From Lachnospiraceae bacterium (GTDB taxonomy: Bacteria; Bacillota; Clostridia; Lachnospirales; Lachnospiraceae), in contig JAFSGE010000057.1 of assembly GCA_017434885.1 (NCBI GenBank), positions 1 through 64,000 on the forward strand: a stretch of 64,000 nt of DNA, in the 5' to 3' direction. This document shows, piece after piece, positions 13,301-40,767 of the stretch. Under the pieces are notes generated by a model that saw only the letters and a list, made by a program, of their open reading frames with translations, ran no database searches and was not told the origin of the DNA. Each line of letters begins with the position of its first letter. Within the stretch, counting starts at the first letter, position 1. The position numbers were made by a program, and so were the translations under genes.

Positions 13301-13385
13301 AAAAATACCTCCCGGCGTGTACTTATTGGTAATATATGACACCGGAAGGCAGTTTATGTCTCTTTCCTTATTTACTTCAATCATA
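13301..13385 (-). other. 5' region of the SPOCS gene
   Basis: 85 bases between the GTG start and the left end of the palindrome. It must hold the promoter, unless that lies in the palindrome. A GTCATATA stretch resembles a sigma-E -35 box, but there is no matching -10. Confidence 0.35.
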
Positions 13386-13838
13386 TGCGCCGCCGGCAAC
13401 GACCGCTCCTTGCACATAAAATTTCGCTTTCAAAGCATATACAGTCTTTTGGGATTTTTTGAACCCATCCTTTTCATATGCTTATTAACTGCCCGTCGCG
13501 AAACTCTAAGCCGCAAGCAATAAGCAGTTTAAAAAGCCTTTTGAAACTTTAGTAAAAAATCTATCGACATACTTTAAAAGATGTACAGGCCATTTCAACA
13601 TGTTCGAAGCGGAGCAAGTTTTGAAATGGCCTGTTTATATCATTTTTAAAGTATGTCGATAAGATTTTTCTAAAAAGTTTCATAGGCTTTCAAACTGTTA
13701 TTGCCGCGGCTTTTCGAACAGTCACGACGGGGCAGTGCATTTATGAAAAGGATGTTTCTAAAAAATCCAACAAAAGACTGTAAAAAGCTTATGAAAGCGA
13801 AATTTTATGTGTAGGGCGCGGACATGGTCGGCGGCGCA
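13386..13838. repeat. 453-bp imperfect palindrome (giant inverted repeat)
   Basis: Two arms of about 215 bases face each other around a 22-base centre (13599-13620). The ends are TGCGCCGCCG (13386) and CGGCGGCGCA (13838). Perfect blocks include 20 bp (13413-13432 with 13792-13811), 18 bp (13562-13579 with 13644-13661) and 13 bp next to the loop (13586-13598 with 13621-13633). Between them the arms match at roughly three-quarters of positions, with small indels. It fills the gap between the pyrD stop and the SPOCS gene. There is no coding capacity of note. A MITE-like or fold-back element is the simplest reading; a clear target duplication was not found. Confidence 0.88.
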
Positions 13839-21034: not shown

Positions 21035-21136
21035 AAACAATTACCTCTTTTCTTTTTATTACCTTTTGTATCTCTGAACTGCTTTCAGTATATACGGTAA
21101 TTGTGTTCAATTTGTGACAAAATCATGACGAATTTG

Positions 21137-22063
21137 TTATTTCCAAAAAAACTTATTCATGGAACAGGCTCTCACCATCTTCTCCGGCAGTTTCTGATAA
21201 CGCTTGCCCAGAAAATATCCTGCATATTTGCAAAAACTCTGCCAGAATAATTTCACAATCAGCCAGGGTTTACCTATAGATACCAAATGCTTGCTGGTCT
21301 GCTTCACCAGTCTGATTCCTTCCCCTTCCGTTTTCAGTCCATTAAACGTTTCGGGAAACTGCGCATGGGATACTCCCAAATCAAAGTTCCTTTGAAATTG
21401 TTGCACCCCTGTATAATTATGGGAATGAATCACTTCCGCTTCTGCCACATATGCAATTTTATACCCTGCATCAATCACCTTACGGGCATAAATCATATCT
21501 TCGTTAAAGATAGTCCGCTTCACAAATCCGCCCAGCTTTTCATAAACCTCTTTGTCATAAGCTGCGCAGGCGTTAGATGCAAAAAAGGTCTTGATTCCCA
21601 TCTTTTCCAAATCTGCCACTCCCTTTATCACTGACCTGTCAGGATAATTAAAGCTTCTTGTATATCTTTCAATTACGCCGCATTCTTCATTGGGTAGCTG
21701 TCTTGCATAACTCATAGCCGCCTTTTTCTCCCATATTGGGGTTAGCAGACTTTCTATTAATCTGTCATTTTGCGGAATGGCATCATCCGTCATCATAACA
21801 AAACAGGGACTTTCTGCTGCCTCTGCCGCACGACGTCTGGTATGGCCATGGTCAAATTCTTTCCGGGAAATATGTTTCACTTCCACATTTTTATAGCGAT
21901 GCCAAAAATCTGTCCCCGCAATCAACGCATCAAAATATTTTTGCTCCGTATTAATCAGATAAATTTTATGAATCGGCACCGTCTGCTCTTTTAATTTATC
22001 CAATAATGCAAATAATCGATTTGTAGGCTTATAAACCGGGATAATCACATCCGTCTGTTTCAT
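21137..22063 (-). CDS. GT2 glycosyltransferase (rhamnosyltransferase-like)
   Basis: 308 residues. The GT-A fold is visible: TDVIIPVYKP at the start, MTDDAIP as the DxD-like nucleotide-sugar motif, and the GGF...NEDMIYARKVIDAGYKIAY segment of RfbF-type rhamnosyltransferases. HSHNYT lies near the C-terminal lid. No membrane segment is predicted. It is separated from the LCP gene by a terminator (22082-22108), so it may be expressed apart from the main locus. AAGGTG precedes the ATG. Confidence 0.87.
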   Translation of the reverse strand: MKQTDVIIPVYKPTNRLFALLDKLKEQTVPIHKIYLINTEQKYFDALIAGTDFWHRYKNVEVKHISRKEFDHGHTRRRAAEAAESPCFVMMTDDAIPQNDRLIESLLTPIWEKKAAMSYARQLPNEECGVIERYTRSFNYPDRSVIKGVADLEKMGIKTFFASNACAAYDKEVYEKLGGFVKRTIFNEDMIYARKVIDAGYKIAYVAEAEVIHSHNYTGVQQFQRNFDLGVSHAQFPETFNGLKTEGEGIRLVKQTSKHLVSIGKPWLIVKLFWQSFCKYAGYFLGKRYQKLPEKMVRACSMNKFFWK

Positions 22064-22139: not shown

Positions 22140-23285
22140 TTATTGAAGATAACCGCTGGTATCTGATTTCACCTTATCGCTGTATTCCTGAACAGCACTT
22201 GATGCGGTATATTCATTATCATTAAACAGGAACTGATGTAACCATGTTACATTATCTGCCAAGGATACCGGTACTACACAGCTTCCCTTAGAACCGATGG
22301 TTCCGGTTGCACGCATATTATCCTCAGGGAATCCTGCCTGACCTACGATTTCATACTTGGTCACATCACCTAAAAGCTCTAAAATTTCAGACAAATCCAA
22401 GGATGTGTAAATTTCATTAAATACATTGTTTGCAATCTCATTGAGCGCTTTAGGCGATGCTGTCTTTGCTTTGTCTGCAATTGCCATCAGAACTTCTCTC
22501 TGACGCTCTGCACGCTTAAAGTCGTCACCTGCTGTATAACGGATACGGCAATACGCTGTTGCCTGAAGACCGTCAAGGAGCTGATAACCTGTTGATGTAA
22601 CAGGTGTATAGCTTCTCTTTAAGTCTTCTGCCATACAAAGCTGATAGTTGTTCAAATGTTCAATCTCTGCTTCATCTACATCAATCATAACACCGCCAAG
22701 GGCATCAATCGTATCACTGAGTCCCGCAAAACCAACTGTTACGAAGTCAGTAATGTTCATATCCAGATTCATATTAAGCATATTGATTGCCTGTTCGGGG
22801 CCACCCTTTGCATACGCCGAGTTACATTTGTTATAAGTGTCGTTACCTAAGTTCAAATAAGTATCACGATATACGGAAACAATCTTACATTCGCCTGTAT
22901 CCATATTAATAGATGCAATCATAATAGAGTCGCTTCGGGTATTCTTTGTTAATTCTCCGCTTGTGGAGTCAACGCCGAAAAGTGCCACGTTACGATACCC
23001 TTTCATGGTCGTTTCCTCTTTTACCTTTACTTCCTCATTGATAACAATGTCTTCTTCTTTAATTTCAACTTTTCCCACTTTTTCGGTCTTTAATACACCA
23101 TATAAAACTACAACCATCAAAAGCAATACAAAAATTTCAACAACGAAAAGAACAATTTTTCCGCCTTTCTTTTTGGACTTTGTTCTGGCTTCGGCTCTCT
23201 TCTTGGCTGCCGCTTTTCTTGCTTTCATTTCATTGCTGTTCTTTGCTGTCTGCTTTTTCACGGGCTTTTTAGACTCTGTAGCCAT
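22140..23285 (-). CDS. LytR-CpsA-Psr (LCP) family wall ligase
   Basis: 381 residues. A Lys/Ala-rich cytoplasmic head, one membrane helix (about 44-65), then the LCP domain: NVALFGVDSTSGE, the Arg/Asp motif NTRSDSIMIASINMDTG, VSVYRDTYLNL, and LDGLQATAYCRIRY with GDDFKRAERQREVL. LCP enzymes transfer undecaprenyl-linked glycans to peptidoglycan, so this one probably attaches the polysaccharide made by the locus upstream. AGGGAG precedes the ATG. Confidence 0.93.
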   Translation of the reverse strand: MATESKKPVKKQTAKNSNEMKARKAAAKKRAEARTKSKKKGGKIVLFVVEIFVLLLMVVVLYGVLKTEKVGKVEIKEEDIVINEEVKVKEETTMKGYRNVALFGVDSTSGELTKNTRSDSIMIASINMDTGECKIVSVYRDTYLNLGNDTYNKCNSAYAKGGPEQAINMLNMNLDMNITDFVTVGFAGLSDTIDALGGVMIDVDEAEIEHLNNYQLCMAEDLKRSYTPVTSTGYQLLDGLQATAYCRIRYTAGDDFKRAERQREVLMAIADKAKTASPKALNEIANNVFNEIYTSLDLSEILELLGDVTKYEIVGQAGFPEDNMRATGTIGSKGSCVVPVSLADNVTWLHQFLFNDNEYTASSAVQEYSDKVKSDTSGYLQ

Positions 23286-23445: not shown

Positions 23446-24855
23446 TTAATAAGCATTTTTATTAATGAATCCTTTAAAAATCGTCAAAAACATAATTTTA
23501 ATGTCAAATCCCATACTCCAGTTCTCAATATAGAACAAATCATATTCTATTCGCTTTCGTATGGAGGTATCCCCACGGTAACCGTTAATCTGCGCCCAGC
23601 CTGTCAGTCCCGGACGAACCTGATGTTTAATCATATAACGGGGAATTTCTTCCTTGAATTTCTCTACAAACTGCGGTCTTTCGGGTCTTGGTCCCACAAG
23701 CGACATCTCACCCATCAAAATGTTAAAAAGCTGCGGCAACTCATCCAGACTGGTCTTCCGTAAAATTTTACCCACCTTGGTAACACGGGGGTCATCCTTC
23801 ACAGTCCATCCCTTAGCCTCCTCGGAAACCTTCTGCATTTCCATGGTACGGAACTTATACATCTTAAATATCTTGTTATGAAGTCCTACTCTCTCCTGCT
23901 TAAAAATAATCGGTCCGCTACTGCTAGCCTTAATGGCAATCGCCGAAACAATCATAAACGGAGAGGCCAGAATAATACCGCAAAGCGCCCCGATAATATC
24001 CACAATACGCTTCGCCACCAGATTTACCGTATTGGTAAGAGGTACATAGCGGATGTTGATTACCGGAAGTCCCATCAAATCCTCCGTGTACGGATGACTG
24101 GGTACCAACGAATTATAGTCAGGTATAAACTTGGTATGAACACCGGACTTTTCACATAAATCAACAATATATTCCAAGTGATCATAATCTTTCAGCGCCA
24201 GGGTAATGGCAATTTCATCCAGTTTATTTTCAGGAAGAATATAATGAATGTTTTCAATTCTTCCGACTACCTTTACTCCTTTGTATGTGGTGCCGCTGGG
24301 AATCCTGTCATCCAAAATCCCCCGCACTACATATCCCCACTGGGGATTTGCATTGATTCTGGTAATATACTCTTCTGCCGCTCTGGAATATCCTATTAAA
24401 AGAATATATTTCATATTGTAGCCTTTGCGCCTGAAAAACTGGAGCATGCTCCGGATTACCGATCGGAATACCGTAGTCAGCACAATATTTATCACATAAA
24501 AAAGAAACATCATAATACGGGAAAAATGCTGCTGTTTGATAATAAACAATACTACAATAAACAGCACCATACCTACCGTGTTGGAAGTTATGATGTTTAT
24601 AATCTCATACTTGCGTCTGGTCGCCCTTTTGGGCTTATACATATTAAAATAATAATAAATCAGAATATATCCGGGTACAACAAAATAAAGGAAACTGAAA
24701 TAGGTTTCCATCGGAAGTGCTCCTGCACCGGGTTCCGTACCTGCAAATACGGTGGCAAATTTTATATACCATGCAAGCAGATAGGAGATTGCCACTACAA
24801 CAGCATCCACTACCAAATGCAATCGGTTAAAAATTTTCTGATTATCCTTTATCAT
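23446..24855 (-). CDS. Polyprenyl-phosphate sugar-1-phosphate transferase (WcaJ type)
   Basis: 469 residues. Four or five N-terminal helices, a CoA-binding-like middle domain (YNMKYILLIGYSRAAEEYI), one more helix and the C-terminal bacterial sugar transferase domain: KRIVDIIG, FKQERVGLHNKIFKMYKFRTM, SLDELPQLFNIL, SLVGPRPE, RPGLTGWAQINGYRG. It starts glycan assembly by moving sugar-1-phosphate (glucose in close relatives) to undecaprenyl phosphate. A good promoter lies just upstream (24878-24906). It is followed by the LCP gene after 160 bases. Confidence 0.93.
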   Translation of the reverse strand: MIKDNQKIFNRLHLVVDAVVVAISYLLAWYIKFATVFAGTEPGAGALPMETYFSFLYFVVPGYILIYYYFNMYKPKRATRRKYEIINIITSNTVGMVLFIVVLFIIKQQHFSRIMMFLFYVINIVLTTVFRSVIRSMLQFFRRKGYNMKYILLIGYSRAAEEYITRINANPQWGYVVRGILDDRIPSGTTYKGVKVVGRIENIHYILPENKLDEIAITLALKDYDHLEYIVDLCEKSGVHTKFIPDYNSLVPSHPYTEDLMGLPVINIRYVPLTNTVNLVAKRIVDIIGALCGIILASPFMIVSAIAIKASSSGPIIFKQERVGLHNKIFKMYKFRTMEMQKVSEEAKGWTVKDDPRVTKVGKILRKTSLDELPQLFNILMGEMSLVGPRPERPQFVEKFKEEIPRYMIKHQVRPGLTGWAQINGYRGDTSIRKRIEYDLFYIENWSMGFDIKIMFLTIFKGFINKNAY

Positions 24856-24907: not shown

Positions 24908-25891
24908 TCAAAAAAATCTCCTCACCAGTCCGAGCCAAAGCTCCCATTGTATCCACAGATAGTTAGCAAAATGCTTCCACCTGAAACGAACTTTTCGCAC
25001 CTTACCTTTGTCTGATGCTGACAGCTTAACACCTTCCAAAACAGCCTTAACGTAAACTCTGCCCATTCCTTTTCTTGCGAAAAACAAAAGCTTAATCAAA
25101 TATCCCGTGACAAGAAACGGTAAATTAAACAAAATCTGCAAAAAAGGCATATTTTTGTAAATCAGGTAAATACTGTTTCTTGCGGAAAGATTCACCTTGA
25201 AAGGGTTATGTCTGGAACCGCTGACAGCGCTTCCGGCATGATATACATGCGCATTTGGCGCAAACAGGTTACAATAGCCCCAAATATTGGCACGGTACCC
25301 TATATCAATATCCTCCAGATAAGCAAAGTGGTTTTCATCAAACAGACCGATTTCATCAAAAACGGCTCTGCGGTATACGGCAGCACCGGCACAGGATGCA
25401 AAAATACGTCCTTCTTTTTCATAACGGGTTACCGGCTTATCTTTCCCTCTTGCAAATGCCCAGCCAAGTGCATTATAAAAATCCCCCGCATCATCTATTT
25501 TCTCCGGAAAATGCAAATTTATCATCTTTGCACCGGCGGAAAAGGCATTCGGATGGCTATCCATCATCTTTTCCAGTTCTTCCACACAATGGCAATCTGC
25601 TTCAGTATCATTATTTAACAAAAACACATATTCCGTCCGTGTTTGTGCTATTCCGACATTCACTGCATGACAAAAGCCTGTATTCTCAGCAAGGCAAATC
25701 AGGCGGATTTCTTCTTTTGTTCCATACTTTTGTTCAATGAGTTCACGGCTGCCGTCTGTCGAAGCATTATCAACAACAATAATCTGCGGCACCAGACTTC
25801 CTGCAAGCAACGTATCCAGACAGGCTTCTATATATTTGATTCCGTTATAATTGGGGATAACTACCGTAGTCCGGCATTTTTTACTATCCAT
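24908..25891 (-). CDS. GT2 glycosyltransferase (WbbL type)
   Basis: 327 residues from the ATG at 25891 (GAAGGAG nine bases upstream; the earlier ATG has no ribosome site). GT-A motifs: TTVVIPNYNG, VDNASTDGS, FLLNNDTEAD as the DxD, and FAYLEDIDIGYRANIWGYCN. The C-terminal basic amphipathic stretch (KVRKVRFRWKHFANYLW) would hold it to the membrane. WbbL relatives add rhamnose, which fits the dTDP-rhamnose genes. It follows the 461-residue GT2 gene by 44 bases. Confidence 0.88.
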   Translation of the reverse strand: MDSKKCRTTVVIPNYNGIKYIEACLDTLLAGSLVPQIIVVDNASTDGSRELIEQKYGTKEEIRLICLAENTGFCHAVNVGIAQTRTEYVFLLNNDTEADCHCVEELEKMMDSHPNAFSAGAKMINLHFPEKIDDAGDFYNALGWAFARGKDKPVTRYEKEGRIFASCAGAAVYRRAVFDEIGLFDENHFAYLEDIDIGYRANIWGYCNLFAPNAHVYHAGSAVSGSRHNPFKVNLSARNSIYLIYKNMPFLQILFNLPFLVTGYLIKLLFFARKGMGRVYVKAVLEGVKLSASDKGKVRKVRFRWKHFANYLWIQWELWLGLVRRFF

Positions 25892-25935
25892 GCCACTCTG
25901 CTCCTTCGACATTTTATGTCAAATCATGATTTAGC

Positions 25936-27318
25936 TCATTCCGTTTTTTCAATGATGGAAGGGTCCCAAACAATCCGCATACCTCTTTCCCTGATTTTTT
26001 GGCAGAATTTCCGACTGATTTCCACATAATCTGCATCATCCTTCATACAATCCCGCCAGTTAAAACGTCCGGTCTGCGGATTTTTCAAATAAGGAAGTCC
26101 CATGATTTCTTCCATAATCTCTTCTCCTGCTTTGGAAGCCACCATACATCGTACATCTATCATTTCCGCTTCCTGACAAAGCACTGCCCTGTGCATGTAA
26201 CCACTGTATTCCTTATGCAGCCCATTAAAAACAGGCTCTCCGGACGCCAAATATATTCCACCTGTTATTTTATTGTTTTTCCCAACCAGTTTACCACCCA
26301 CTGCACCTACATCCGGTCGATTGGCCAGTAAATCCGGTTCATATACCACCCGGTAAAAGCCAAGATGCTTTAAATGCTGTACTTGACCATTCCATTCTCT
26401 GTATCTTAAGAAATCTTCCACTGCACGCTTCCCTGCATCATAGGCATAACGCTTACTTTCAGGGTTTTCTGCGGTAGAGGCCTCATGGCAACGCCAGTGA
26501 TACAACACCTTGGGAACATGAGCGATGGGAAGCTCCTGTGCTTTTTCTGCACGCTTATTTTTACCCATCATGTGGCTGACTGCACGCAGCACCAAGTCAA
26601 AGTCTTGTGCCCCGTCACAAATCGGTCTGAATTGCAATTCCTGCAACAAAATGCGATTCATCACCAAGAAATGACAAATATAGTTATTGCTCAAAATTAA
26701 ATCTAGATTAAATTTCGGCTTTTTATTTACCTCGTAGTATATCGTTTCATCGCTGTTACATTTATCCTCATCCGAGTATAACATCTGTAATTCTATTCCG
26801 TTCTGTTGTGCTGCATTAATACACGCCGCCATTTCATATAATGCATCTTCTGTCAGCACATCATCATGGTCAAGTAATCCCGCATAATCCCCTGTGGCAT
26901 ACATAAGTGCCTGATTGGTGTTTGCTGAGATACCTCCGTTTTGTTTTAATCTTTTATATTTGATTCTTTCATCCTGATAGGTACTTACTACACGTTCCAC
27001 ACAGTCGGAAGTACTGGCATCCGCAAGGATTAGCTCAAAGTTTCCGTAAGTTTGGACAAGCACAGACTCTATCATTCTGCGCAGATATTCTTCTTTGGTC
27101 TCATATGTGGGTACCAAAATACTGAACTTGCAATGAAGCATTTTCCCCTTCTGTCTTTGTTCTTCCAATACCTCTTCCGGTAAGTGTTCATAAAAATAAG
27201 CATCTGCTTTCTCTAATCCGATGCGTTCCCGCGCCGCATAATAAGCATGCTTAAATCCGTTTTTCTTCAAATAATTGATTGTTTTCCTTATATTGCTTAT
27301 TTTCAGAATCTTTCCCAT
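25936..27318 (-). CDS. GT2 glycosyltransferase with truncated second domain
   Basis: 460 residues from the ATG at 27318 (GGGAG upstream). The first GT2 domain (about 62-290) is complete: FSILVPTYET, LADASTSDC, GLLDHDDVL, LYSDEDKC, NNYICHF, GAQDFDLVLR. After residue 328 the chain jumps from a typical interdomain end (VVYEPDLL) straight to PDVGAVGGKL, which in tandem relatives lies in the second half of the second GT domain. So the second catalytic core is absent. This may be a feature of its subfamily and not damage. It sits between the phosphohexomutase and WbbL-type genes. Confidence 0.83.
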   Translation of the reverse strand: MGKILKISNIRKTINYLKKNGFKHAYYAARERIGLEKADAYFYEHLPEEVLEEQRQKGKMLHCKFSILVPTYETKEEYLRRMIESVLVQTYGNFELILADASTSDCVERVVSTYQDERIKYKRLKQNGGISANTNQALMYATGDYAGLLDHDDVLTEDALYEMAACINAAQQNGIELQMLYSDEDKCNSDETIYYEVNKKPKFNLDLILSNNYICHFLVMNRILLQELQFRPICDGAQDFDLVLRAVSHMMGKNKRAEKAQELPIAHVPKVLYHWRCHEASTAENPESKRYAYDAGKRAVEDFLRYREWNGQVQHLKHLGFYRVVYEPDLLANRPDVGAVGGKLVGKNNKITGGIYLASGEPVFNGLHKEYSGYMHRAVLCQEAEMIDVRCMVASKAGEEIMEEIMGLPYLKNPQTGRFNWRDCMKDDADYVEISRKFCQKIRERGMRIVWDPSIIEKTE

Positions 27319-27387
27319 ACAGGCTCCCACTAATGATACATCCGCATTTCATACAGGAAACCTGTGCACGGATGCACTAATATTCAA

Positions 27388-27438: not shown

Positions 27439-29160
27439 TTACAAATATGCTTTCAAGCTTTCTGTCAGCTTCTCTACCTTATCCTGTGCATCTTCAAGGC
27501 TTGTTCCCTTTACACCCATATAGAATTTAATCTTAGGCTCTGTTCCTGAAGGTCTTGCACAACACCAGGAATCATTGGTAAGGTCAAAGTAAAGCACGTT
27601 GGACTTCGGAAGACCCGTCTTACCTTCTTCACCGGTTTCTAAGTTCTTCAGCACGTCCATATCGTAATCTCTGAATTCTTTCACTGTAAGCTCTCCAAAG
27701 TTCTTAGGCGGATTATTGCGGAGCTTGTTCATCATTTCTGCAATCTGGGCAGCACCGTCGATGCCCTTTAAGGTGATTGCGTACTGTGTTTCTTTGAAAT
27801 AACCATACTTCTCATATAATTTTACCATCTGATCCCAAACAGTAATTCCGTTCTTCTTGCACCATGCAGCCACTTCGCAGAGACACATAACCGCTACAAT
27901 AGCATCTTTGTCTCTTGCATGGGTTCCTGCCAGACATCCATAACTTTCTTCCAGACCAAATACATAATTATTGGAGCCTGTCTGTTCAAAGAATTTAATC
28001 TGCTCACCGATATACTTAAATCCTGTGAGAACTTCAATAAACTTCACGCCGTAATCCTTGGCGATAGCTGCTGCCATGTTGGTAGTAACAATGGTACTTA
28101 CCAAAGCAGGATTTTCAGGCATGGTACCTGTCGCGGTTCTTTCTCTTAAAATATATTCTGCAATCAGCATACCGGACATATTTCCTGTGAAAGGTACATA
28201 TTCACCGGTCTTGCTGTCCAACGCATAAATACCCAGTCTGTCTGCATCGGGGTCTGTTGCCAGAACGATATCTGCATTCTTTTCTTTTGCCAGTTTAAGG
28301 GCAAGGGTAAATGCCTTGGGGTCTTCAGGATTGGGATAATCCAGTGTAGTGAAATTGGGGTCAGGCATTTCCTGCTCAGGTACAACATATACATGCTTAA
28401 ATCCAAGTTCGGAAAGGATTCTTCTTGCGGGAACATTTCCTGTTCCGTTGAAAGGAGAATATACAATCTTGATATCATCGGCAACTTCCTTGATAATTTC
28501 AGGATGAATAATCTGCTTCTTTAACTCTTCCATGTATGCGTCATCAATTTCTTTGCCGATTACCTGATAAAGGCCTGCTGCCATGGCATCTTCTTTAGAC
28601 ATGGACTTTACTTCATGGTAATCTGTTACATTCTTTACTTCTGTAATAATTTCTTTATCTCTGGGGGCAGTAACCTGTGCACCGTCCTCCCAGTAAGCCT
28701 TATATCCGTTATATTCCGGAGGATTATGGCTTGCCGTAATTACAATGCCGGAAATACAGCCTAATTTACGAAGTGCAAAGGAAAGCTCCGGTGTGGGGCG
28801 AAGTGCATCAAACACATACGCTTTGATACCGTTTGCACAAAGACAAAGCGCTGCTTCATCTGCAAATTCGGGAGACATTCTTCTGGAATCGTAAGCAATT
28901 GCCACACCTCTGTCTTTGCCGCCCTGCTTGATTATGTAGTTTGCAAGTCCCTGAGTTGCTTTTCTTACGGTATAAATGTTCATACGGTTGGTACCTGCTC
29001 CGATTACGCCGCGAAGTCCGCCTGTACCAAACTCCAATTCTCTGTAAAAACGATCTTCTATTTCTTTTTCATCTGCTGCAATACCGCGAAGTTCCTCTTT
29101 AGTAGCCTCATCAAAGTACGCATCGTTTAACCAAAAATCATACTGCTCTTTGTAGCTCAT
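27439..29160 (-). CDS. Phosphoglucomutase/phosphomannomutase
   Basis: 573 residues from the ATG at 29160 (AGGAGG nine bases upstream). It is the long phosphohexomutase type: metal/phosphate-accepting serine loop ITASHNPPEYNGYK, GTGGLRGVIGAGTNRMN near the N-terminus, DPDADRLGIYA metal loop, GLEESYGCL sugar loop and SGTEPKIKFY phosphate loop. It interconverts glucose-6- and glucose-1-phosphate, the latter being the substrate of RfbA. Its place among the glycosyltransferases suggests it supplies glucose-1-phosphate for this polysaccharide. Confidence 0.93.
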   Translation of the reverse strand: MSYKEQYDFWLNDAYFDEATKEELRGIAADEKEIEDRFYRELEFGTGGLRGVIGAGTNRMNIYTVRKATQGLANYIIKQGGKDRGVAIAYDSRRMSPEFADEAALCLCANGIKAYVFDALRPTPELSFALRKLGCISGIVITASHNPPEYNGYKAYWEDGAQVTAPRDKEIITEVKNVTDYHEVKSMSKEDAMAAGLYQVIGKEIDDAYMEELKKQIIHPEIIKEVADDIKIVYSPFNGTGNVPARRILSELGFKHVYVVPEQEMPDPNFTTLDYPNPEDPKAFTLALKLAKEKNADIVLATDPDADRLGIYALDSKTGEYVPFTGNMSGMLIAEYILRERTATGTMPENPALVSTIVTTNMAAAIAKDYGVKFIEVLTGFKYIGEQIKFFEQTGSNNYVFGLEESYGCLAGTHARDKDAIVAVMCLCEVAAWCKKNGITVWDQMVKLYEKYGYFKETQYAITLKGIDGAAQIAEMMNKLRNNPPKNFGELTVKEFRDYDMDVLKNLETGEEGKTGLPKSNVLYFDLTNDSWCCARPSGTEPKIKFYMGVKGTSLEDAQDKVEKLTESLKAYL

Positions 29161-29220
29161 AACAAATCCTCCTGAATTTTTATTCATGAATGAAATTCAT
29201 TCATATTAAAGTATATCATA

Positions 29221-31237: not shown

Positions 31238-33490
31238 TTATTTCTTTTTGTTTTTGGCTTCCGAATCCTCCACCTGTTTCAGACTTCCGTCCACCTGCAA
31301 CACCCAACTGCTCCAATTCACTAATTTTTGTCTGGAACACCTATCCTCTTCCAGCATGCCAAACCGATACTCTCCATCAGGAATATCTTCCAATCTGACC
31401 TTTCCGGCAAATCCGGTTAAATCCACATTTAACTGGTCTGTCAAATTTTTCCTGATATCCGGCCTGTATCTATCCTGTACGGCAATGTACAGAACCTGCT
31501 TACTTTCCTTATTTTCAAGCAAAAGCGTTTTTTTGTAACACGCGTTATTTGCGCCGATAACAAAGGAATATCCTTGAAAATAATAACCCATATCTTCCGC
31601 CTTTGGTTCTGCTTCCCCTTTTCCCGGAGCCACCCCGTATTTCCATTTATAAATATCCATGGCACCTTCCATTCCGATAACAACACAGCCGTCCTGCCTT
31701 ATATTTTCAGGCAGTCTGTCCTTCGCTGTCACCTTTGCCCATGGCATATCAAGCGTCACCTGATAAGAAAACGCCGGCGAGTACTCTGATTCCAACATAT
31801 CATTTGTAAGATATTTGTGATAAAAAGGATCTGTCCCATATATCTTCTGATGTTTTTCATACAAAACATCCTTTTCCCGCAAAAGACGAAGCTGTTTTTC
31901 TTCCGATTCCCCGTCTTTTCCGCGGCTTAAAGACTCATGATGGTACAAAGTAACATCATTTCTTACAATATTATAATATCCCGCTTCAAAAAACTTATAG
32001 CACAAATCCACATCATTAAAAGCAACTGCCAATGCCTCCTCAAAGCCGCCTACCTGTTCAAAAACAGACTTTTTCACAAGCAGACATGCACCGGTTACCG
32101 CAAGCATATTGTGAACTCCTCTGTTTCTTCCGTAATACCAGTCTGTCTTGTCCGAAAGAAACTGCAATTTATGCGCAGGTCCCACACGCAAATTAGTGAT
32201 ACCTGCATGCTGAATGATATCAGAATCAGGATAAAGAAGCTTTGCGCCAACTGCTCCCGCATAGGAAAGCATAGCTTTTTCTACCAGCAGGGAAAGCCAG
32301 TTCTCCTGAACAATTTCCATGTCGTCATTTAAAAACAATAACAGATTTCCCTTGGCATAGTCTGCTCCCATATTACACATACGGGAAAAGTTAAAGGTCA
32401 TAGGTCTATGGTAATAACGTATCAGTTCTCCTTCCACATACTCCCATGCCTTCTCATTTTGTACAGCAATTTCTGTCTGAATCCTTTCCTTATTTTCTTC
32501 ATTGCTTCCATTATCAACAATTACTATCTCATAAGGAAATTCGCATTTTGTCCTATCTAAAAAAGAACGGATACAGGTAAACAGTACATCCGGGTTATCT
32601 TTTGACGGAATTATCACGGATACAAAAGGACTTTCCGCGTTATTTCCTGTTTGCACACGGCAAGACTCCAATTTCCAGTTCTTCACAGTATCATATGCAC
32701 ATTCTTTTCCATGGAATAAAATTTCACTCAAATGATAAACCGGCACGCAATCCCCGTTTCGCATACTAAAGGCACCGCTTCGGCAAAGCACCCGCATAAG
32801 AAGCTCATACAGACCTTCCCCTCCTACATGCTCAGATACAACAAAATCATCCGCAAGCAGTAACAATTCCTTTCTTCTGACAGCGGTTAAACTGCCGAAA
32901 TAAAAGTAGGAAAGGAAACTGTCGGGAGCAAAATCCGGTTTAAACCACGGGTTCTTCCTTTTCCCTTCTACCCTTACGTCTTCATCTCCGTAAATCACGA
33001 TTATATTTTTGTTTTCCAAGAAGCATTTTGCCATCTCACATACTGCAAAATCAGCCAAATCTCCCTCAAAAGCCTGAAATAAAATAACATCCGCTTCGCA
33101 TTTTTTTATACAAGAAAGTACCTCCTGCATTTTCAATCTGCGAATCTCTTCCGGCAAAAGCAAAACAAAGGAAAAAACAGCATTATTGTTGTTTTTTTCG
33201 TCAAAAACTTCCAAATATCGACATTTTAAACCGTTTTTTGAATGAATTCCTTCATTTTGTTTTCCAAATCTTTCATCATTGTCCTTTACTTCTGCATTTG
33301 TCAGACTTATTTCACTTTCCCTCACAACAAGACCGTCAACTTTAAGCCGTTCCTCCTGTATTGTTATCCACTTTTCATAGGACATCATTTTTTCGAAAAG
33401 TTCTTCCGCATATTGCTTTTCCTGTTTATTTATCAGAATATTTTTCAGTCCCTGTTTCAGTGAAGTCACTTTTAATTCCTTTCTGTGCAT
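31238..33490 (-). CDS. Large GT2 glycosyltransferase with degenerate first domain
   Basis: 750 residues (a GTG seven codons in, at 33469, has the better ribosome site). Residues about 100-260 keep the scaffold of a GT2 domain (IYGDEDVRVEGKRKNPWFKPDF) but lack its N-terminal nucleotide-binding strand. Residues about 288-530 are a complete GT2 domain: FVSVIIPSKDN, VDNGSNEE, LFLNDDMEI, GGFEEALAVAFNDVDLCYK. The last ~170 residues form an extra, probably beta-rich domain of unknown role. It follows the methyltransferase-kinase gene. Confidence 0.87.
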   Translation of the reverse strand: MHRKELKVTSLKQGLKNILINKQEKQYAEELFEKMMSYEKWITIQEERLKVDGLVVRESEISLTNAEVKDNDERFGKQNEGIHSKNGLKCRYLEVFDEKNNNNAVFSFVLLLPEEIRRLKMQEVLSCIKKCEADVILFQAFEGDLADFAVCEMAKCFLENKNIIVIYGDEDVRVEGKRKNPWFKPDFAPDSFLSYFYFGSLTAVRRKELLLLADDFVVSEHVGGEGLYELLMRVLCRSGAFSMRNGDCVPVYHLSEILFHGKECAYDTVKNWKLESCRVQTGNNAESPFVSVIIPSKDNPDVLFTCIRSFLDRTKCEFPYEIVIVDNGSNEENKERIQTEIAVQNEKAWEYVEGELIRYYHRPMTFNFSRMCNMGADYAKGNLLLFLNDDMEIVQENWLSLLVEKAMLSYAGAVGAKLLYPDSDIIQHAGITNLRVGPAHKLQFLSDKTDWYYGRNRGVHNMLAVTGACLLVKKSVFEQVGGFEEALAVAFNDVDLCYKFFEAGYYNIVRNDVTLYHHESLSRGKDGESEEKQLRLLREKDVLYEKHQKIYGTDPFYHKYLTNDMLESEYSPAFSYQVTLDMPWAKVTAKDRLPENIRQDGCVVIGMEGAMDIYKWKYGVAPGKGEAEPKAEDMGYYFQGYSFVIGANNACYKKTLLLENKESKQVLYIAVQDRYRPDIRKNLTDQLNVDLTGFAGKVRLEDIPDGEYRFGMLEEDRCSRQKLVNWSSWVLQVDGSLKQVEDSEAKNKKK

Positions 33491-33527: not shown

Positions 33528-35615
33528 TTAGCCAAACAGCTTCTTCTTACCTGCAATTATCGTTTCTGCAAGTTCTTTTGTCAAAGGAGCAATTTCCAAT
33601 TTAACAGACAGTACATTTTCCCCTGTTCTGGGCAATTCACTCAGTTTAATTGTCATATTAGGGTCTGTTGTTGCAAAAACAAAGGAATCCTTCTCAAGCG
33701 GCGTTCCGTTGGAAACAATGCATTTCTTATTAAAAGGTACTGCAATCCCATTAACAAGCAGTTCCTTTAGCTTCACAACACAATATTTGTCTGCCGGGTC
33801 AATACGGAGCGCAGTCACGTTTCCGTCAAAAGGAATTTCCGCTTCAATTACATTCTCTTCTGTATAAATGTCCGGCAAATAGTAGGAATCCGCTTCTGAA
33901 AATCCGGTTCCTCTGTCCAAATAAACCTGAATCCTTTTATCCAAAATTTCCTGCAAATGTTTTTCCGTCAGTACCTTGGGATCTACCGCGTAAGTTCCGA
34001 TTGTTGCACGGATTTCACCCATAGACTTGCGTTTTCCTGTCACATGCTTCTGAAATTTTAATTCCTTTTCACGATACTCATCCGCTTCTGCCGGTGTGAT
34101 ACCAAGCCTCTTTATAATATAATCTAAATTTAATTTATTTCGTTTTTCTTCCTCAAGTACATAACAGTACACTGCTCGGAACGCAATTTCCTTTGACGGA
34201 ACTACCTCTTCTTTTGTCCACTCATAGTCAATAACAGTCCAGTTGTCTCCGTCTACCAAAATATTGGCAAATATCAGGTCATAATCTGCAACCGCTTTTT
34301 CTTCTCCGTAAGAAATGAACTCCAAATACTTGTCAAACAAGCTATAAAATGCCTCAGTATCATCCTTTTCCAAGCTTTCATCCAAAAGCATTTCCAGTGT
34401 TTTTCCTTTTTCAAAGGGAAAAGCAGCATAGCCTTTCTCTTCCACCCACTTACAGGCATTCACGGAAAGCCCGCTACCCTCGTACCGCTCAGAAAGCTGC
34501 TTGTAATAGCTTTCCATCTTCTTTACGTGGGAAACTGCATGAGAAGATAGCGGAATTTTGCGAATTTCCTTTCCTTCCTTTGTTTCTGCAAGTTCCGTTC
34601 TGAGTACATATTCATCTATTCTGTCATTGGAATATTTGGCATAGACAGTTTCAGGCTCTTTTCCGATTACCACCATATAGGAATTAGAAAAGACATCAAA
34701 CAAGCGGTCTGTAATTACACCGTCAAAAACATACTTTTCATTGAAGAGAACCATCCTGTCCCTGTCAAAATTACGCATGTTATTTGTAAGTTCTCCCATT
34801 TCAGGAAGCCTTTTATCCGAATAAATCACTGTAGGAAACTTATAATCAGGATAGGGATAATAAAAGGCACGCTGTTTCACACCACAGTTATCCATAATTC
34901 TTTCCAAACCCGGTCGTGTAAAGGTTCTGGCACTTCCGCCATCCGGATAGCCTTCCAATCCGCTGAAATAAGTGCCTACATGGTCTTCCTTACATCCTGC
35001 CCAGTACTTTAAGCCGAATTTATTCTCAATGGCAATCACAAGGCGTCCGCTTACTTTAACATGCTTCATCATGATTTTCAGAAAATCTTCATATGGAGTT
35101 TCTGTTCCCATATAGGACTGGGCATATTCAAATACCCCTATCAAGCAGACATAATCATAATCCATAGGAAGCTCCGGCTCAATATCACTGAAGTTTCCCA
35201 CGCAAATCCTGATATTATCCCTGTCCTGATTGCGGTACGCATTGATATGGCTTCTTTTGGCAGACAAATCTACGCAAGTTACCTCTCCTGCCTTTTCTGA
35301 AAGCTTATCGGTAATTGCCCCACATCCGGAACCGATTTCCAGTACTTTGTGACTCTTATCAATGGGAAGCCAGTCTACAATATTGGCACGAAGCGGCGAT
35401 AAATGATATAAAATCGGCCAGCTTCCCTCTCTCTCAATGATAGAGGGATACTCCACTCTTGATGCAGTCTTTACAATAGAAAGCAGTTCATCTTCAATTG
35501 CACCGTCACTGTACAAATCCTCTCCCGGATAATGACGATAATCCAAAGTAACCTTGCCAATTTGTTTTGGCAAGGCACTAATTAGTTCTTCCTGTTTTAA
35601 GTGTAACGGCTTCAT
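33528..35615 (-). CDS. SAM methyltransferase fused to a kinase-like domain (WbdD-like layout)
   Basis: 695 residues from ATG at 35615; a TTG at 35651, overlapping the end of wzt, is the alternative. Residues about 55-260 are a class I methyltransferase: VLEIGSGCGA (91-100), VTCVDLS, YVCLIGVFEY. Residues about 320-480 resemble an aminoglycoside-phosphotransferase/kinase fold, with a catalytic-loop-like DYDLIFANILVD (444-455; Asp, four residues, Asn) and VIDYEW (461-466) in place of DFG. A third, probably beta-rich part covers about 560-690. Methyltransferase plus kinase beside Wzt recalls WbdD, which caps O-antigen chains. That function is inference; the kinase loop has Asp where His is usual. 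Confidence 0.75.
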   Translation of the reverse strand: MKPLHLKQEELISALPKQIGKVTLDYRHYPGEDLYSDGAIEDELLSIVKTASRVEYPSIIEREGSWPILYHLSPLRANIVDWLPIDKSHKVLEIGSGCGAITDKLSEKAGEVTCVDLSAKRSHINAYRNQDRDNIRICVGNFSDIEPELPMDYDYVCLIGVFEYAQSYMGTETPYEDFLKIMMKHVKVSGRLVIAIENKFGLKYWAGCKEDHVGTYFSGLEGYPDGGSARTFTRPGLERIMDNCGVKQRAFYYPYPDYKFPTVIYSDKRLPEMGELTNNMRNFDRDRMVLFNEKYVFDGVITDRLFDVFSNSYMVVIGKEPETVYAKYSNDRIDEYVLRTELAETKEGKEIRKIPLSSHAVSHVKKMESYYKQLSERYEGSGLSVNACKWVEEKGYAAFPFEKGKTLEMLLDESLEKDDTEAFYSLFDKYLEFISYGEEKAVADYDLIFANILVDGDNWTVIDYEWTKEEVVPSKEIAFRAVYCYVLEEEKRNKLNLDYIIKRLGITPAEADEYREKELKFQKHVTGKRKSMGEIRATIGTYAVDPKVLTEKHLQEILDKRIQVYLDRGTGFSEADSYYLPDIYTEENVIEAEIPFDGNVTALRIDPADKYCVVKLKELLVNGIAVPFNKKCIVSNGTPLEKDSFVFATTDPNMTIKLSELPRTGENVLSVKLEIAPLTKELAETIIAGKKKLFG

Positions 35616-35644
35616 TCTTTCTCGTTTTCCTTCCACTTGTTCTG

Positions 35645-36973
35645 TTAACAATTCGCATCGGCCACTTTGACATCAGAATTCATATCAAAATAACCCACTG
35701 TATTTTTATCAGAAATCACTGTAATATTCAGCACGTCATATAATCTGTGATAAACCTGAAAATCTTCCTTTTCATATCCCGTAACCCCCAGGGAAAGCAG
35801 ATATTCTCCGCCCTGTAGATTGATTTCCTGCGTAAATGTAATTTCTTTTACACAGCCCGCCTTAACAGGTTCTAAGAAAGCCTTCTCTATCAGGGTATTG
35901 GTTCCCGTAATTTCCACACCTTTTATATTTTTGATGGTAAATGCAAAGATAGGGGCTTCCACATCTTCATGAAAACGCACCTTCATATGCACACTACAGG
36001 GCTTCCCTTTTAATATGGTACTCGTATCACGGTTCATACCATCTGTTATTTTATATGTTTCTATGGTAGCTGCCCGTGTACCGTACTCAAGCAATTCCGG
36101 ATTTACTACGTTTGCATTTATTCCCTCTGTACTACTTGCTGTTTTTATACCATCTGCACTGGCTGCTGCAGCAGCTTCTATCTCTTCATCATCCAACAGG
36201 CTGGTGTTTGTTCCGTCATCAGAAACATACTGACCTACCAACACCTGCTTGTAGACATCAATCATCTCCTTGGGACTTCCCTCACCCAGCTTCACTCCCT
36301 GATTCAGCAAAACTACACGGTCGCAATATTTGCTGATACTGCTGAGATCATGACTGACAAACACAATGGTTTTCCCCATCTCTTTAAATTCTTCAAATTT
36401 GTGATAACACTTTGCCTGAAAGAACACATCACCTACAGATAACGCTTCATCCACAATCAATATTTCCGGTTCAATATTAATGGCAACGGCAAATGCCAGC
36501 CTCACAAACATACCGCTGGAATATGTTTTGCAGGGCTGATATACATAATCTCCAATATCTGCAAAGCTTAAAATGTCATCCATTTTGGCATCGATTTCTT
36601 TTTTGGAAAATCCCATCATGGTTCCGTTTAAGTACACGTTCTCAATACCGTTATACTCCATATTAAAGCCTGCACCAAGCTCCAAAAGAGCTGAAACACG
36701 TCCGTTTACATTAACATCACCGCGTGTGGCATTAAGCACGCCTGTAATAATCTTCAAAATTGTCGATTTGCCGGAACCGTTGGTACCGATAATTCCCACG
36801 GTCTCCCCTTGATAAATCGTCATATCCACGCCTTTTAGCGCATAGTGTTCTTTATATTTTTTCTTTCTGCCAAGTCCCAATGCTTCTTTCAGCCGGTCCG
36901 AAGGCTTGTTATACAGTTTATAAGCCTTTTCCAGGCCACTTACCTGTATTGCAATTTCTTTCTTGTTTTCCAT
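35645..36973 (-). CDS. wzt: Polysaccharide ABC transporter ATPase with C-terminal extension (Wzt)
   Basis: 442 residues. The ATPase (about 1-250) has Walker A GTNGSGKST (63-71), signature YSSGM, Walker B ILIVDEALSVGD and switch His VSHD. After a variable linker, residues about 285-442 form a beta-rich domain like the Wzt carbohydrate-binding domain that recognises the capped end of an O-antigen. Its presence suggests export is coupled to a terminal modification, fitting the methyltransferase-kinase next door. GGAAGGAA precedes the ATG; 21 bases follow the permease gene. Confidence 0.93.
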   Translation of the reverse strand: MENKKEIAIQVSGLEKAYKLYNKPSDRLKEALGLGRKKKYKEHYALKGVDMTIYQGETVGIIGTNGSGKSTILKIITGVLNATRGDVNVNGRVSALLELGAGFNMEYNGIENVYLNGTMMGFSKKEIDAKMDDILSFADIGDYVYQPCKTYSSGMFVRLAFAVAINIEPEILIVDEALSVGDVFFQAKCYHKFEEFKEMGKTIVFVSHDLSSISKYCDRVVLLNQGVKLGEGSPKEMIDVYKQVLVGQYVSDDGTNTSLLDDEEIEAAAAASADGIKTASSTEGINANVVNPELLEYGTRAATIETYKITDGMNRDTSTILKGKPCSVHMKVRFHEDVEAPIFAFTIKNIKGVEITGTNTLIEKAFLEPVKAGCVKEITFTQEINLQGGEYLLSLGVTGYEKEDFQVYHRLYDVLNITVISDKNTVGYFDMNSDVKVADANC

Positions 36974-38032: not shown

Positions 38033-38599
38033 TTAACCATTCTTTCTATTTTCGGTATATTCTTTCAGTCCGCCCCACTTTTGGTCTTTTTCAGACATAA
38101 TCAGCTCAGTTCCGGGGGCAATAGGCCACTTGATACCGATATCAGGGTCATCATATTTAAGACCGCCTTCATCATTGGGATGATAGAAGTCGGTACATTT
38201 ATACGCAAATTCTGCATAATCGGAAAGCACAACAAACCCATGTGCAAAATTTTTGGGGATAAAAAATTGCTTTTTGTTTTCCGCGGAAAGAACCACTCCG
38301 TACCATTTCCCATAGGTTTCGGAACCGGGACGTAAATCTACCGCTACGTCAAACACTTCCCCTGCAATCACTCTTACCAGCTTGTCTTGAGGGTAATTAA
38401 TCTGAAAATGAAGTCCGCGAAGCACATTTTTTACGGAAGAAGACTGATTGTCCTGCACAAATACCTGATCTATTCCTGCCTCCTTATAATCATTATAATT
38501 ATAACTTTCCATAAAATAGCCTCTCGCATCCCCAAACACAGCAGGGGTGATAACTTTCAATCCTTCTATTTCACATGTTTCAACTGTAATCTTTCCCAT
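38033..38599 (-). CDS. rfbC: dTDP-4-dehydrorhamnose 3,5-epimerase
   Basis: 188 residues, full length. Cupin motifs: GDARGYFMESYNY, FVQDNQSSSVKNVLRGLHFQ (catalytic His in the last), VRVIAGEVFDVAVDLRPGS, and FIPKNFAHGFVVLSD. It makes dTDP-4-keto-L-rhamnose from the RfbB product. AGGAGAG precedes the ATG. Confidence 0.96.
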   Translation of the reverse strand: MGKITVETCEIEGLKVITPAVFGDARGYFMESYNYNDYKEAGIDQVFVQDNQSSSVKNVLRGLHFQINYPQDKLVRVIAGEVFDVAVDLRPGSETYGKWYGVVLSAENKKQFFIPKNFAHGFVVLSDYAEFAYKCTDFYHPNDEGGLKYDDPDIGIKWPIAPGTELIMSEKDQKWGGLKEYTENRKNG

Positions 38600-38664: not shown

Positions 38665-39534
38665 TTACAAACCTTCCGCAACCTCTTTTAGATATTTGCC
38701 GTAATCTGTTTTCATAAGGGGCTGTGCAAGATTAAGGAGTTGCTCTTTGTCAATAAATCCTCTCTTATATGCAATCTCCTCAATACAGGAAATATAAAGT
38801 CCCTGGCGCTTCTGAAAAGCCGCCACAAAATCTGCCGCATCCAAAAGGGAATCATGATTTCCGGTATCAAGCCACGCAAATCCTCTTCCCATGGTTTCTA
38901 CACGAAGAGTTCCTCTTCGTAAATATTCATTGTTAATACTTGTAATTTCAATTTCACCTCTTGCGGAAGGCTTTACATTCTTTGCAATTTCCACTACATC
39001 ATTGTCATAAAAATATAATCCCGGCACCGCATAATTGCTCTTGGGATTGGCCGGTTTTTCTTCGATGGAAATCGCTTTTCCCGTCTCATCAAATTCCACT
39101 ACACCATACTCTCTGGGATCACGCACATAGTAGCCGAATATGGTTGCACCACTCTCTCTGGACGCCACTTCCCTAAGCATTTTGGAAAAGCTCTGACCAT
39201 AGAAAATATTATCACCAAGTACCAGTGCCACGGAATCATTTCCGATAAAATCCGCACCGATAATAAATGCATCTGCAAGACCTCTTGGAACCTCCTGAAC
39301 AGCATAGGCAAACTTCATGCCAAGCTGACTTCCGTCTCCTAAAAGTTCTTCAAAAACCGGCAAATCTCTGGGAGTTGAAATAATAAGTACTTCTCTGATT
39401 CCCGCCAACATCAATGTTGACAGAGGATAATAAATCATCGGTTTGTCATAAACCGGCATAATCTGTTTACTGATTGCTTTTGTAAGGGGATAAAGTCTTG
39501 TTCCTGACCCTCCCGCCAAAATAATTCCTTTCAT
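38665..39534 (-). CDS. rfbA: Glucose-1-phosphate thymidylyltransferase
   Basis: 289 residues. The nucleotide loop [17 protein letters not shown] and the motifs [26 protein letters not shown] and [22 protein letters not shown] are intact. It joins glucose-1-phosphate to dTTP, the first step to dTDP-rhamnose, and is normally inhibited by dTDP-rhamnose. GGAGG lies eight bases before the ATG. A hairpin stands between it and rfbB. Confidence 0.97.
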
Positions 39535-39681: not shown

Positions 39682-40767
39682 TTATACATTTTTATACATA
39701 GCATCGTAATACTTCTGATAATCGCCGCTGGTCGCATTCTTCATCCAGTCTTCATGTTCAAAATACCACTGAATTGTCTTGCGGATACCTTCTTTGAACA
39801 TGGTTTCCGGTTCCCAACCGATTTCAGCCTTAATCTTATCAGGTGCAATGGCATATCTTCTGTCATGTCCCTTACGGTCAGCCACATATTCAATCAGATT
39901 TTCACTGACCAGTTCTTTTCTGGGGTCACCTTCCGGAAGCATATCCTGCAAGGTATCTAAGATGATATGCAAAATTTCAATATTCTGCTTTTCATTGTGA
40001 CCGCCTACATTGTATGTTTCGAACAGTTTTCCTTGTTCCTGTACCATATCGATTGCCTTGGCATGGTCTTCTACATAAAGCCAGTCACGCACATTCTTAC
40101 CGTCTCCGTAAACCGGAAGCTTTTTCCCTTGGAGCGCATTGTTAATCATAAGAGGAATGAACTTCTCAGGGAACTGATAAGGTCCGTAATTGTTGGAACA
40201 ATTTGTAATATTGGCAGGAAACTTATAAGTATCCATATATGCTTTCACCAACATATCTGAGCTTGCTTTACTTGCGGAATAAGGGCTGTGAGGATCATAA
40301 GGTGACGTCTCATAGAAGAAGGCATTCTCATCATCAGGAAGTGAACCGTATACCTCATCTGTGGAAACATGAAGGAACTTTTTCCCTTCTTTGAAGCTGC
40401 CGTCAGGAAGCTCCCATGCTGCCTTGGCACAGTTTAACATTACCGCTGTTCCCAAAACATTCGTCTGCACAAACACTTCGGGATTTGCAATACTTCTGTC
40501 TACATGGCTCTCTGCCGCAAAATGAACCACTCTGTCAATATCGTTTTCTGCAAAAATCTTTGCAATTGCTTCCTTATCACAAATATCAGCCTTTACAAAA
40601 GTATAATTTTCTCTTTTTTCCACTTCTGTAAGGTTTTCCAGATTACCTGCATAAGTAAGCGCATCCACATTAATAATTCTAATCGTATCTCCGTATTTTT
40701 TGAACATATAATGAATATAGTTGGAACCGATAAAACCGGCACCGCCTGTGACCAAATAAGTTCTCAT
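39682..40767 (-). CDS. rfbB: dTDP-glucose 4,6-dehydratase
   Basis: 361 residues, an extended SDR enzyme: NAD loop VTGGAGFIGSNYIHYM, FAAESHVDRSI, STDEVYGSL with the catalytic Thr-Asp-Glu, YSASKASSD (Tyr and Lys) and NCSNNYGPYQFPEKFIPL. It makes dTDP-4-keto-6-deoxyglucose. It is the first gene of the polysaccharide operon and has a promoter and leader hairpin upstream. GGAGAG precedes the ATG. Confidence 0.97.
   Translation of the reverse strand: MRTYLVTGGAGFIGSNYIHYMFKKYGDTIRIINVDALTYAGNLENLTEVEKRENYTFVKADICDKEAIAKIFAENDIDRVVHFAAESHVDRSIANPEVFVQTNVLGTAVMLNCAKAAWELPDGSFKEGKKFLHVSTDEVYGSLPDDENAFFYETSPYDPHSPYSASKASSDMLVKAYMDTYKFPANITNCSNNYGPYQFPEKFIPLMINNALQGKKLPVYGDGKNVRDWLYVEDHAKAIDMVQEQGKLFETYNVGGHNEKQNIEILHIILDTLQDMLPEGDPRKELVSENLIEYVADRKGHDRRYAIAPDKIKAEIGWEPETMFKEGIRKTIQWYFEHEDWMKNATSGDYQKYYDAMYKNV

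What the first reader, a model, noticed from the sequence alone, without database searches (positions are those of the whole stretch)
33528..36973. Possible WbdD-like capping enzyme beside a CBM-type Wzt in a Gram-positive
A class I methyltransferase followed by a kinase-like domain (Asp-x4-Asn loop, IDYEW) stands next to a Wzt carrying a C-terminal carbohydrate-binding-like domain. In E. coli O8/O9a this combination sets chain length: WbdD methylates/phosphorylates the end and Wzt recognises it. Finding the pair with Wzm, LCP and rhamnose genes suggests a capped, ABC-exported wall polysaccharide in a Firmicute. The kinase loop deviates from HxD, so activity is uncertain.
Basis: partly seen in the sequence, partly recalled or inferred. 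Interest (0 to 1): 0.75.

Follow-up and report, generated by a model that had tools for sequence, protein, structure and literature searches.

The report
Capping enzyme paired with wall-sugar exporter
A gut bacterium of the Lachnospiraceae type carries an enzyme that very likely marks the finished end of a rhamnose-containing surface sugar chain with a methylated phosphate, next to an exporter with a sugar-binding tail that probably reads this mark; the same pair recurs in about half of the relatives sampled.

Summary
Gene 33528-35651(-) encodes a class I methyltransferase, a kinase-fold domain and a beta domain; gene 35645-36973(-) encodes Wzt with a C-terminal carbohydrate-binding domain (Pfam Wzt_C, E 4e-41). 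AlphaFold models are confident (pLDDT 93-94); the kinase part alone matches kinases or phosphotransferases in all 50 PDB rows shown. Catalytic Lys, Asp, Asn and Asp are conserved in 80 of 80 close relatives, so loss of the HxD histidine does not suggest a dead kinase.

The closest characterised enzyme is not WbdD but the Klebsiella pneumoniae O7 terminator ORF6 (JBC 2024), shown in vitro to put methyl-phosphate on C3 of a terminal rhamnose; the link runs through a Pseudomonas homologue. In 150 family genomes, 78 carry the enzyme and 77 a high-scoring Wzt_C; 77 carry both, adjacent in 66. One relative fuses the two.

The variant is new: the protein has no room for the coiled-coil ruler reported in other terminators. 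Capped, ABC-exported glycans in Gram-positives were already known (Geobacillus; phospho-rhamnose cap in C. difficile). Activity and cap chemistry here are inferred.

The parts
33528..35651 (-). terminator: methyltransferase - kinase - beta (CBM-like) domain, 707 aa from TTG; likely real start ATG at 35615
34659..35567 (-). class I methyltransferase domain (residues 29-331), SAM loop E105-x-G107-x-G109-C-G111
33960..34652 (-). kinase domain (residues 334-564): K365, D458, N463, D475, E477-W478
33570..33938 (-). beta domain (residues 572-694), CBM-like by position and strand content; 13 aa tail after it
   Evidence: DSSP of models; tail length; its own fold was not searched
35645..36973 (-). wzt, ABC ATPase with C-terminal carbohydrate-binding domain
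35681..36088 (-). Wzt_C domain (residues 296-431)
   Evidence: E 4e-41; the only Wzt_C match found in this genome
36995..38026 (-). wzm, ABC permease
   Evidence: ABC2_membrane 1e-13
31238..33490 (-). gtA, GT2 glycosyltransferase
   Evidence: a GT directly follows the terminator in 73 of 80 related loci (3 do not, 4 contig ends)
29221..31191 (-). gtB, two GT2 matches; short coiled-coil-like segment at residues 11-41 (heuristic)
27439..29187 (-). phosphoglucomutase/phosphomannomutase
25936..27330 (-). gtC, GT2
24908..25912 (-). gtD, GT2-like
   Evidence: by eye from the translation; similar gene in related loci
23446..24855 (-). initiating polyprenyl-phosphate sugar transferase (WbaP-like)
   Evidence: Bac_transf 4e-73
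22140..23285 (-). LCP ligase (LytR_cpsA_psr)
   Evidence: 2e-33
21137..22063 (-). GT2
38033..38599 (-). rmlC
   Evidence: by eye from the translation; in 75 of 80 related loci
38665..39534 (-). rmlA
   Evidence: by eye from the translation; in 73 of 80 related loci
39682..40767 (-). rmlB
   Evidence: by eye from the translation; in 63 of 80 related loci

Best explanation
33528-35651 is a chain terminator that works like K. pneumoniae O7 ORF6. A rhamnose-containing chain is built on undecaprenyl phosphate in the cytoplasm by the GT2 enzymes; the kinase domain phosphorylates the non-reducing-end sugar (by analogy O-3 of a terminal rhamnose) and the methyltransferase then methylates that phosphate, stopping growth. 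The Wzt C-terminal domain binds the cap, and Wzm-Wzt exports only capped chains, which LCP then attaches to the wall. Shown here: folds, conserved catalytic residues, homology, gene pairing and one Wzt-terminator fusion. Inferred: both activities, the cap, its recognition by Wzt and the wall linkage. Unlike the terminators described in the papers seen, this protein has no coiled-coil ruler; chain length must be set otherwise, perhaps by a short coil on gtB or by Wzt.
For: Kinase fold. Catalytic residues 80 of 80. Homology to Pseudomonas asturiensis L061, E 9e-41 over residues 28-524 of the 688-aa query, methyltransferase and kinase; L061 has a Tyr, Tyr, Gly, Gly, Glu and Tyr exactly at 28, 66, 91, 93, 112 and 158, the numbers published for ORF6, and its catalytic Asp at 443 against 441, with wzm-wzt just upstream. 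Co-occurrence: enzyme in 78, Wzt_C at 120 bits or more in 77, both in 77 of 150 genomes; adjacent in 66 of 77. Wzt directly before it in 71 of 80 named loci (5 not directly, 2 in one frame with it of which 1 is doubtful, 2 contig ends); the clean fusion is L078, 1217 aa. Over 31 loci Wzt_C (54.1% mean identity) is more conserved than the kinase (28.6%) and a little more than the methyltransferase (48.9%), less than the Wzt ATPase (73.1%), compatible with a constant ligand.
Against: No activity or glycan structure is known to me for a Lachnospiraceae member. The ORF6 sequence itself was not available; the link runs through L061, and the other plasmid homologue (Citrobacter, residues 17-390 only) is shifted by one residue from the ORF6 numbers at all six places and by five at the Asp. 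The kinase profile matches L061 only weakly (4e-5) and did not reach Citrobacter L062, whose DFG-like Asp is Glu. The coiled coil reported in all ORF6 orthologues is absent (tail 13 aa). WbdD's R203, H132 and H133 were not mapped onto this methyltransferase. 17 of the 94 genomes with any Wzt_C lack this enzyme, and in 11 of 77 the two are not adjacent, 3 of them on different contigs. The 1e-5 and 120-bit limits were set after seeing the scores.
Confidence: 0.75

Rival explanations
1. O8-like cap: the methyltransferase methylates a sugar hydroxyl and the kinase-fold domain only binds glycan or holds the complex together (pseudokinase).
For: E. coli O8 WbdD lacks a kinase and methylates sugars directly (PMC3482155, passage); G. 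stearothermophilus WsaE makes a 2-O-methyl cap in a Gram-positive (PMC2943079, passages). The kinase domain is a fast-evolving part.
Against: K365, D458, N463, D475 kept in 80 of 80; a pseudokinase would be expected to lose them. The O7 relative is an active kinase (PMC11231755).
Confidence: 0.1
2. The enzyme caps, but the end group is another phosphate, for example 2,3-cyclic phospho-rhamnose or unmethylated phosphate, with the methyl placed elsewhere.
For: The C. difficile SLCT-11 S-layer glycan ends in a phospho-rhamnose described as 2,3-cyclophosphoryl in the abstract and tentatively as 3-phospho in the text (PMC6254364, passages).
Against: Methyltransferase and kinase domains lie in one ORF or in neighbouring ORFs in the loci read, and the O7 relative makes methyl-phosphate (PMC11231755). 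Whether C. difficile SLCT-11 has this enzyme was not tested.
Confidence: 0.12
3. The enzyme decorates internal sugars (phosphate/methyl side groups) and is linked to Wzt only because both lie in polysaccharide loci.
For: Operon neighbourhood alone cannot exclude it.
Against: 77 of 77 genomes with the high-scoring Wzt_C have it; a Wzt fusion exists; homology, through L061, to a shown terminator.
Confidence: 0.05

Closest known systems
K. pneumoniae O7 terminator ORF6 (PMC11231755; section 11 part 1 and passages read)
   Same: Order MT - unannotated APH-like kinase - beta domain; wzm, wzt and rml genes in the locus; SAM residues and catalytic Asp at matching positions through L061
   Different: ORF6 continues into a coiled coil and two GT2 modules; here the protein ends after the beta domain and the GTs are separate genes. 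The orthologues mentioned in its text are from alpha- and gammaproteobacteria and cyanobacteria
WbdD of E. coli O9a / K. pneumoniae O3 (PMC3482155; sections 6 and 7 and passages read)
   Same: MT plus kinase, CBM-type Wzt partner, proposed methyl-phosphate cap
   Different: No sequence match among those shown (60 of 143 shown); no coiled-coil tail here; rhamnose genes in place of a mannan system
WsaE and Wzm/Wzt of G. stearothermophilus (PMC2943079, passages)
   Same: Gram-positive, rhamnan, methyl-type cap, Wzm/Wzt export
   Different: No kinase in the passages read; MT joined to two GT domains; the S-layer protein is the acceptor
C. difficile SLCT-11 S-layer glycan (PMC6254364, passages)
   Same: Clostridia, rhamnose-rich, phospho-rhamnose at the non-reducing end, ABC export
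   Different: Capping enzyme not named in the passages read; protein-linked

Membership tests
K. pneumoniae O7 ORF6-type MT-kinase terminator | N-terminal SAM methyltransferase with Y28, Y66, G91, G93, E112, Y158 | tested here: met
   Same numbers in the proxy L061 (ORF6 itself not available; which motif each number falls in is my reading); aligned window residues Y47, Y82, G107, G109, D128, Y176; 80 of 80 in relatives except D/E at 128 (54 D, 26 E)
K. pneumoniae O7 ORF6-type MT-kinase terminator | Kinase-fold domain with catalytic Asp right after the methyltransferase | tested here: met
K. pneumoniae O7 ORF6-type MT-kinase terminator | Ig-like CBM after the kinase | tested here: inconclusive
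   A beta domain is predicted at 573-690, but its own fold was not searched and the profile did not reach L061
K. pneumoniae O7 ORF6-type MT-kinase terminator | Coiled coil after these domains (all ORF6 orthologues, PMC11231755) | tested here: not met
   Tail 13 aa in the window; median 11, at most 31 aa in 80 close relatives. Of 26 single-ORF forms in the wider set 24 have 44 aa or less, two have 82 and 122; coil-like segments occur in several split and giant relatives. Hence filed as a variant, not a plain member
K. pneumoniae O7 ORF6-type MT-kinase terminator | Adds methyl-phosphate to C3 of terminal Rha | not testable with these tools
   needs enzyme assay and NMR
WbdD | Sequence or fold kinship to the WbdD kinase (4azs) | tested here: inconclusive
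   Not listed; the lists are truncated
WbdD | C-terminal coiled-coil ruler | tested here: not met
WbdD | R203, H132, H133 phosphate site of the methyltransferase | not tested
   no coordinates available for superposition
CBM-type Wzt | ABC ATPase with C-terminal Wzt_C domain | tested here: met
   the fold of the tail was not modelled
APH/Bud32-like kinase fold | Bilobal kinase fold with beta3 Lys, catalytic Asp, Asn and DFG-like Asp | tested here: met

The most novel reading that the evidence does not exclude
A ruler-free terminator: in one Lachnospiraceae clade the MT-kinase has lost (or never had) the coiled coil, and chain length is set by another part, either a short coil on the polymerising GT gtB or direct coupling of the terminator to the exporter, as the Wzt-terminator fusion in L078 suggests. 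Termination and export would then be one machine rather than two steps linked by a ruler.
Probability: 0.3. Interest if true: 0.75.

Novelty: new variant of a known kind. Interest (0 to 1): 0.55.

Why it matters
If true, methyl-phosphate chain termination, which the papers seen here show for Gram-negative O antigens, would also operate on the wall polysaccharides of a common gut family; a kinase that Pfam does not recognise (1 of 49 members touches APH, E 0.0066) would gain a function; and there would be a natural system without the coiled-coil ruler thought typical of such terminators. The cap and its Wzt reader would be a constant element on otherwise variable surface glycans of commensals.

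Tried and rejected
Plain WbdD membership: no sequence match among the rows shown and none in the fold rows shown; searches are truncated, so this is absence of evidence. AmiN (6sul), the closest kinase reported for ORF6, was also not among the rows shown, though other APHs were.

HxD objection: rejected, because the catalytic Asp, the Lys and the metal ligands are kept; that kinases can do without the histidine is recalled.

A second in-frame Wzt-terminator ORF (L112, 1170 aa) was dropped because the stretch holds many undetermined bases. A first coiled-coil scan was too strict and was replaced, whose limit gives 24 false segments in 70,341 shuffled residues; it is a home-made heuristic. At that limit 41 of 80 terminators and 68 of 75 Wzt also show a segment (in the ten terminators listed it lies in the kinase or the Wzt part), so single hits mean little; the absence of a ruler rests on tail length. 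Five genomes with weak hits (G016, G035, G050, G096, G106; E 5e-5 to 5e-4) were dropped, which cut the list at E 1e-5. In one search (212 of 291 genomes at E <= 1e-3) most of the weak hits listed cover only the SAM motif region and look like other methyltransferases, two of them in the window's own genome; no prevalence is claimed from it. In the tree 19 of 49 inner branches are open, several long branches meet and the bootstrap had not settled. The window's clade of 20 rows there has tails of 4 to 44 aa.

Paper searches for a Gram-positive or Lachnospiraceae terminator: (8 of 10 allowed); no title or abstract start listed described this enzyme in Lachnospiraceae, but most of the papers listed were not opened. 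The 2019 Glycobiology census of terminators (Mann et al., seen as a reference in PMC11231755) is not held, so it may already list such loci.

Full report
What is there. On the minus strand, rmlB-rmlA-rmlC-wzm-wzt-terminator-gtA-gtB-pgm-gtC-gtD-sugar transferase-LCP-GT2 run from 40767 to 21137 (rml genes and gtD named by eye). The terminator ORF (707 aa) overlaps wzt by 7 nt, with a likelier ATG at 35615. rmlD is on another contig. In this genome one Wzt_C match and one match to the terminator were found.

Is the kinase alive? Over 31 diverse loci the kinase domain averages 28.6% identity, yet (window included) K365, N463, D475, E477 and W478 are kept in 32 of 32 rows and D458 in 31; in 80 closer relatives all six are 80 of 80; in 49 kinase rows R344, T352, K365, N463, D475, E477 and W478 are invariant (numbers shifted by 329). 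Of the motifs checked only the HxD histidine is replaced. Outside this group the picture is looser: Citrobacter L062 has Glu for the DFG-like Asp.

Who carries it. Of 150 family genomes, 83 have a match at E <= 1e-3, 78 at E <= 1e-5. Wzt_C is found in 94 of 150 at E <= 1e-3 and in 77 at 120 bits or more; 77 of 78 enzyme-positive genomes are among these (G076 is not), and no high-scoring Wzt_C genome lacks the enzyme (Fisher p 9e-43). Genomes are related, so the p-value overstates the evidence; the limits were chosen after the fact, and 17 of the 94 lack the enzyme. The matched piece of the enzyme starts within 900 nt behind Wzt_C on the same strand in 66 of 77; 8 are placed otherwise and 3 lie on another contig.

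Neighbourhood. In 80 named loci, wzt is directly upstream in 71; five have it further away or behind another gene, two are contig ends, two share a frame with wzt, of which L078 (1217 aa) is clean and L112 is not counted. A GT follows directly in 73, not in 3, and 4 are contig ends. The fusion in L078 argues that terminator and exporter belong together, though it rests on one MAG.

Module shuffling. Relatives carry MT-kinase-beta in one ORF, MT and kinase(-beta) as neighbouring ORFs, or giants with MT and kinase (five of 1237-1367 aa with a GT match, one of 1890 aa without). Coil-like segments lie behind the kinase or beta domain in several split and giant forms. In the tree of 52 methyltransferase domains the window lies in a clade of 20 fused rows (100/97), with split forms among its nearest neighbours (bootstrap not settled).

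Link to a known enzyme. tblastn finds homologues on plasmids of Pseudomonas asturiensis (28.5% over residues 28-524 of the 688-aa query, E 9e-41) and Citrobacter braakii (29.3% over 17-390, E 7e-29), both straight after an ABC permease and ATPase gene. The Pseudomonas protein (1457 aa) has Y28, Y66, G91, G93, E112 and Y158 at the very numbers given for K. pneumoniae O7 ORF6 in PMC11231755, and its catalytic Asp is 443 against 441; the Citrobacter protein is off by one at these places. ORF6 was shown there to phosphorylate C3 of the terminal rhamnose and to methylate that phosphate; D441A abolished the kinase reaction. ORF6 itself could not be compared.

Mechanism. Most likely: phosphorylation of the end sugar, methylation of the phosphate, recognition by Wzt_C, export, LCP attachment. 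Only the anatomy, homology and pairing are shown. In PMC6254364 (passages) a clostridial S-layer glycan ends in phospho-rhamnose, so such an end group exists in this class of bacteria.

What is new. The terminators described in PMC11231755, ORF6 orthologues included, carry a coiled coil (passages). Here the protein ends 13 aa after the beta domain, and in 80 fused relatives the tail is 11 aa at the median and 31 at most; in the wider set two of 26 single-ORF forms have longer tails (82 and 122 aa). Of 69 gtB proteins 54 have a coil-like segment that starts in the first 130 residues (heuristic), which might have taken over the ruler role. This makes it a variant rather than a plain member.

Noticed in passing
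L078:6411-10064: Wzt and the terminator fused in one 1217-aa ORF with an acidic linker, in one MAG.
   Followed up: partly
window 31069-31161: Short coiled-coil-like segment at the N-terminus of gtB (residues 11-41), followed by PLWKMSSPLRK; 54 of 69 gtB relatives have a segment starting in the first 130 residues.
   Followed up: partly
window 40858-43422: GH25 lysozyme-like protein with an N-terminal acidic (D/E/Y) repeat, a PTEAP-type repeat and a choline-binding repeat.
   Followed up: no
window 31238-33490: gtA seems to hold a second, degenerate GT2-like domain before the Pfam-detected one (by eye).
   Followed up: no
L048:1336-1932, L053:778-2433, L037:2397-3920: Matches to the terminator's beta (CBM-like) domain in proteins other than the terminator.
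   Followed up: no
window 11753-13417 and 19655-21040: A SipL-domain protein with LysM and a trypsin/PDZ (HtrA-like) protease lie near the polysaccharide cluster.
   Followed up: no
G076: The only one of 78 genomes with the enzyme but without a high-scoring Wzt_C match.
   Followed up: no
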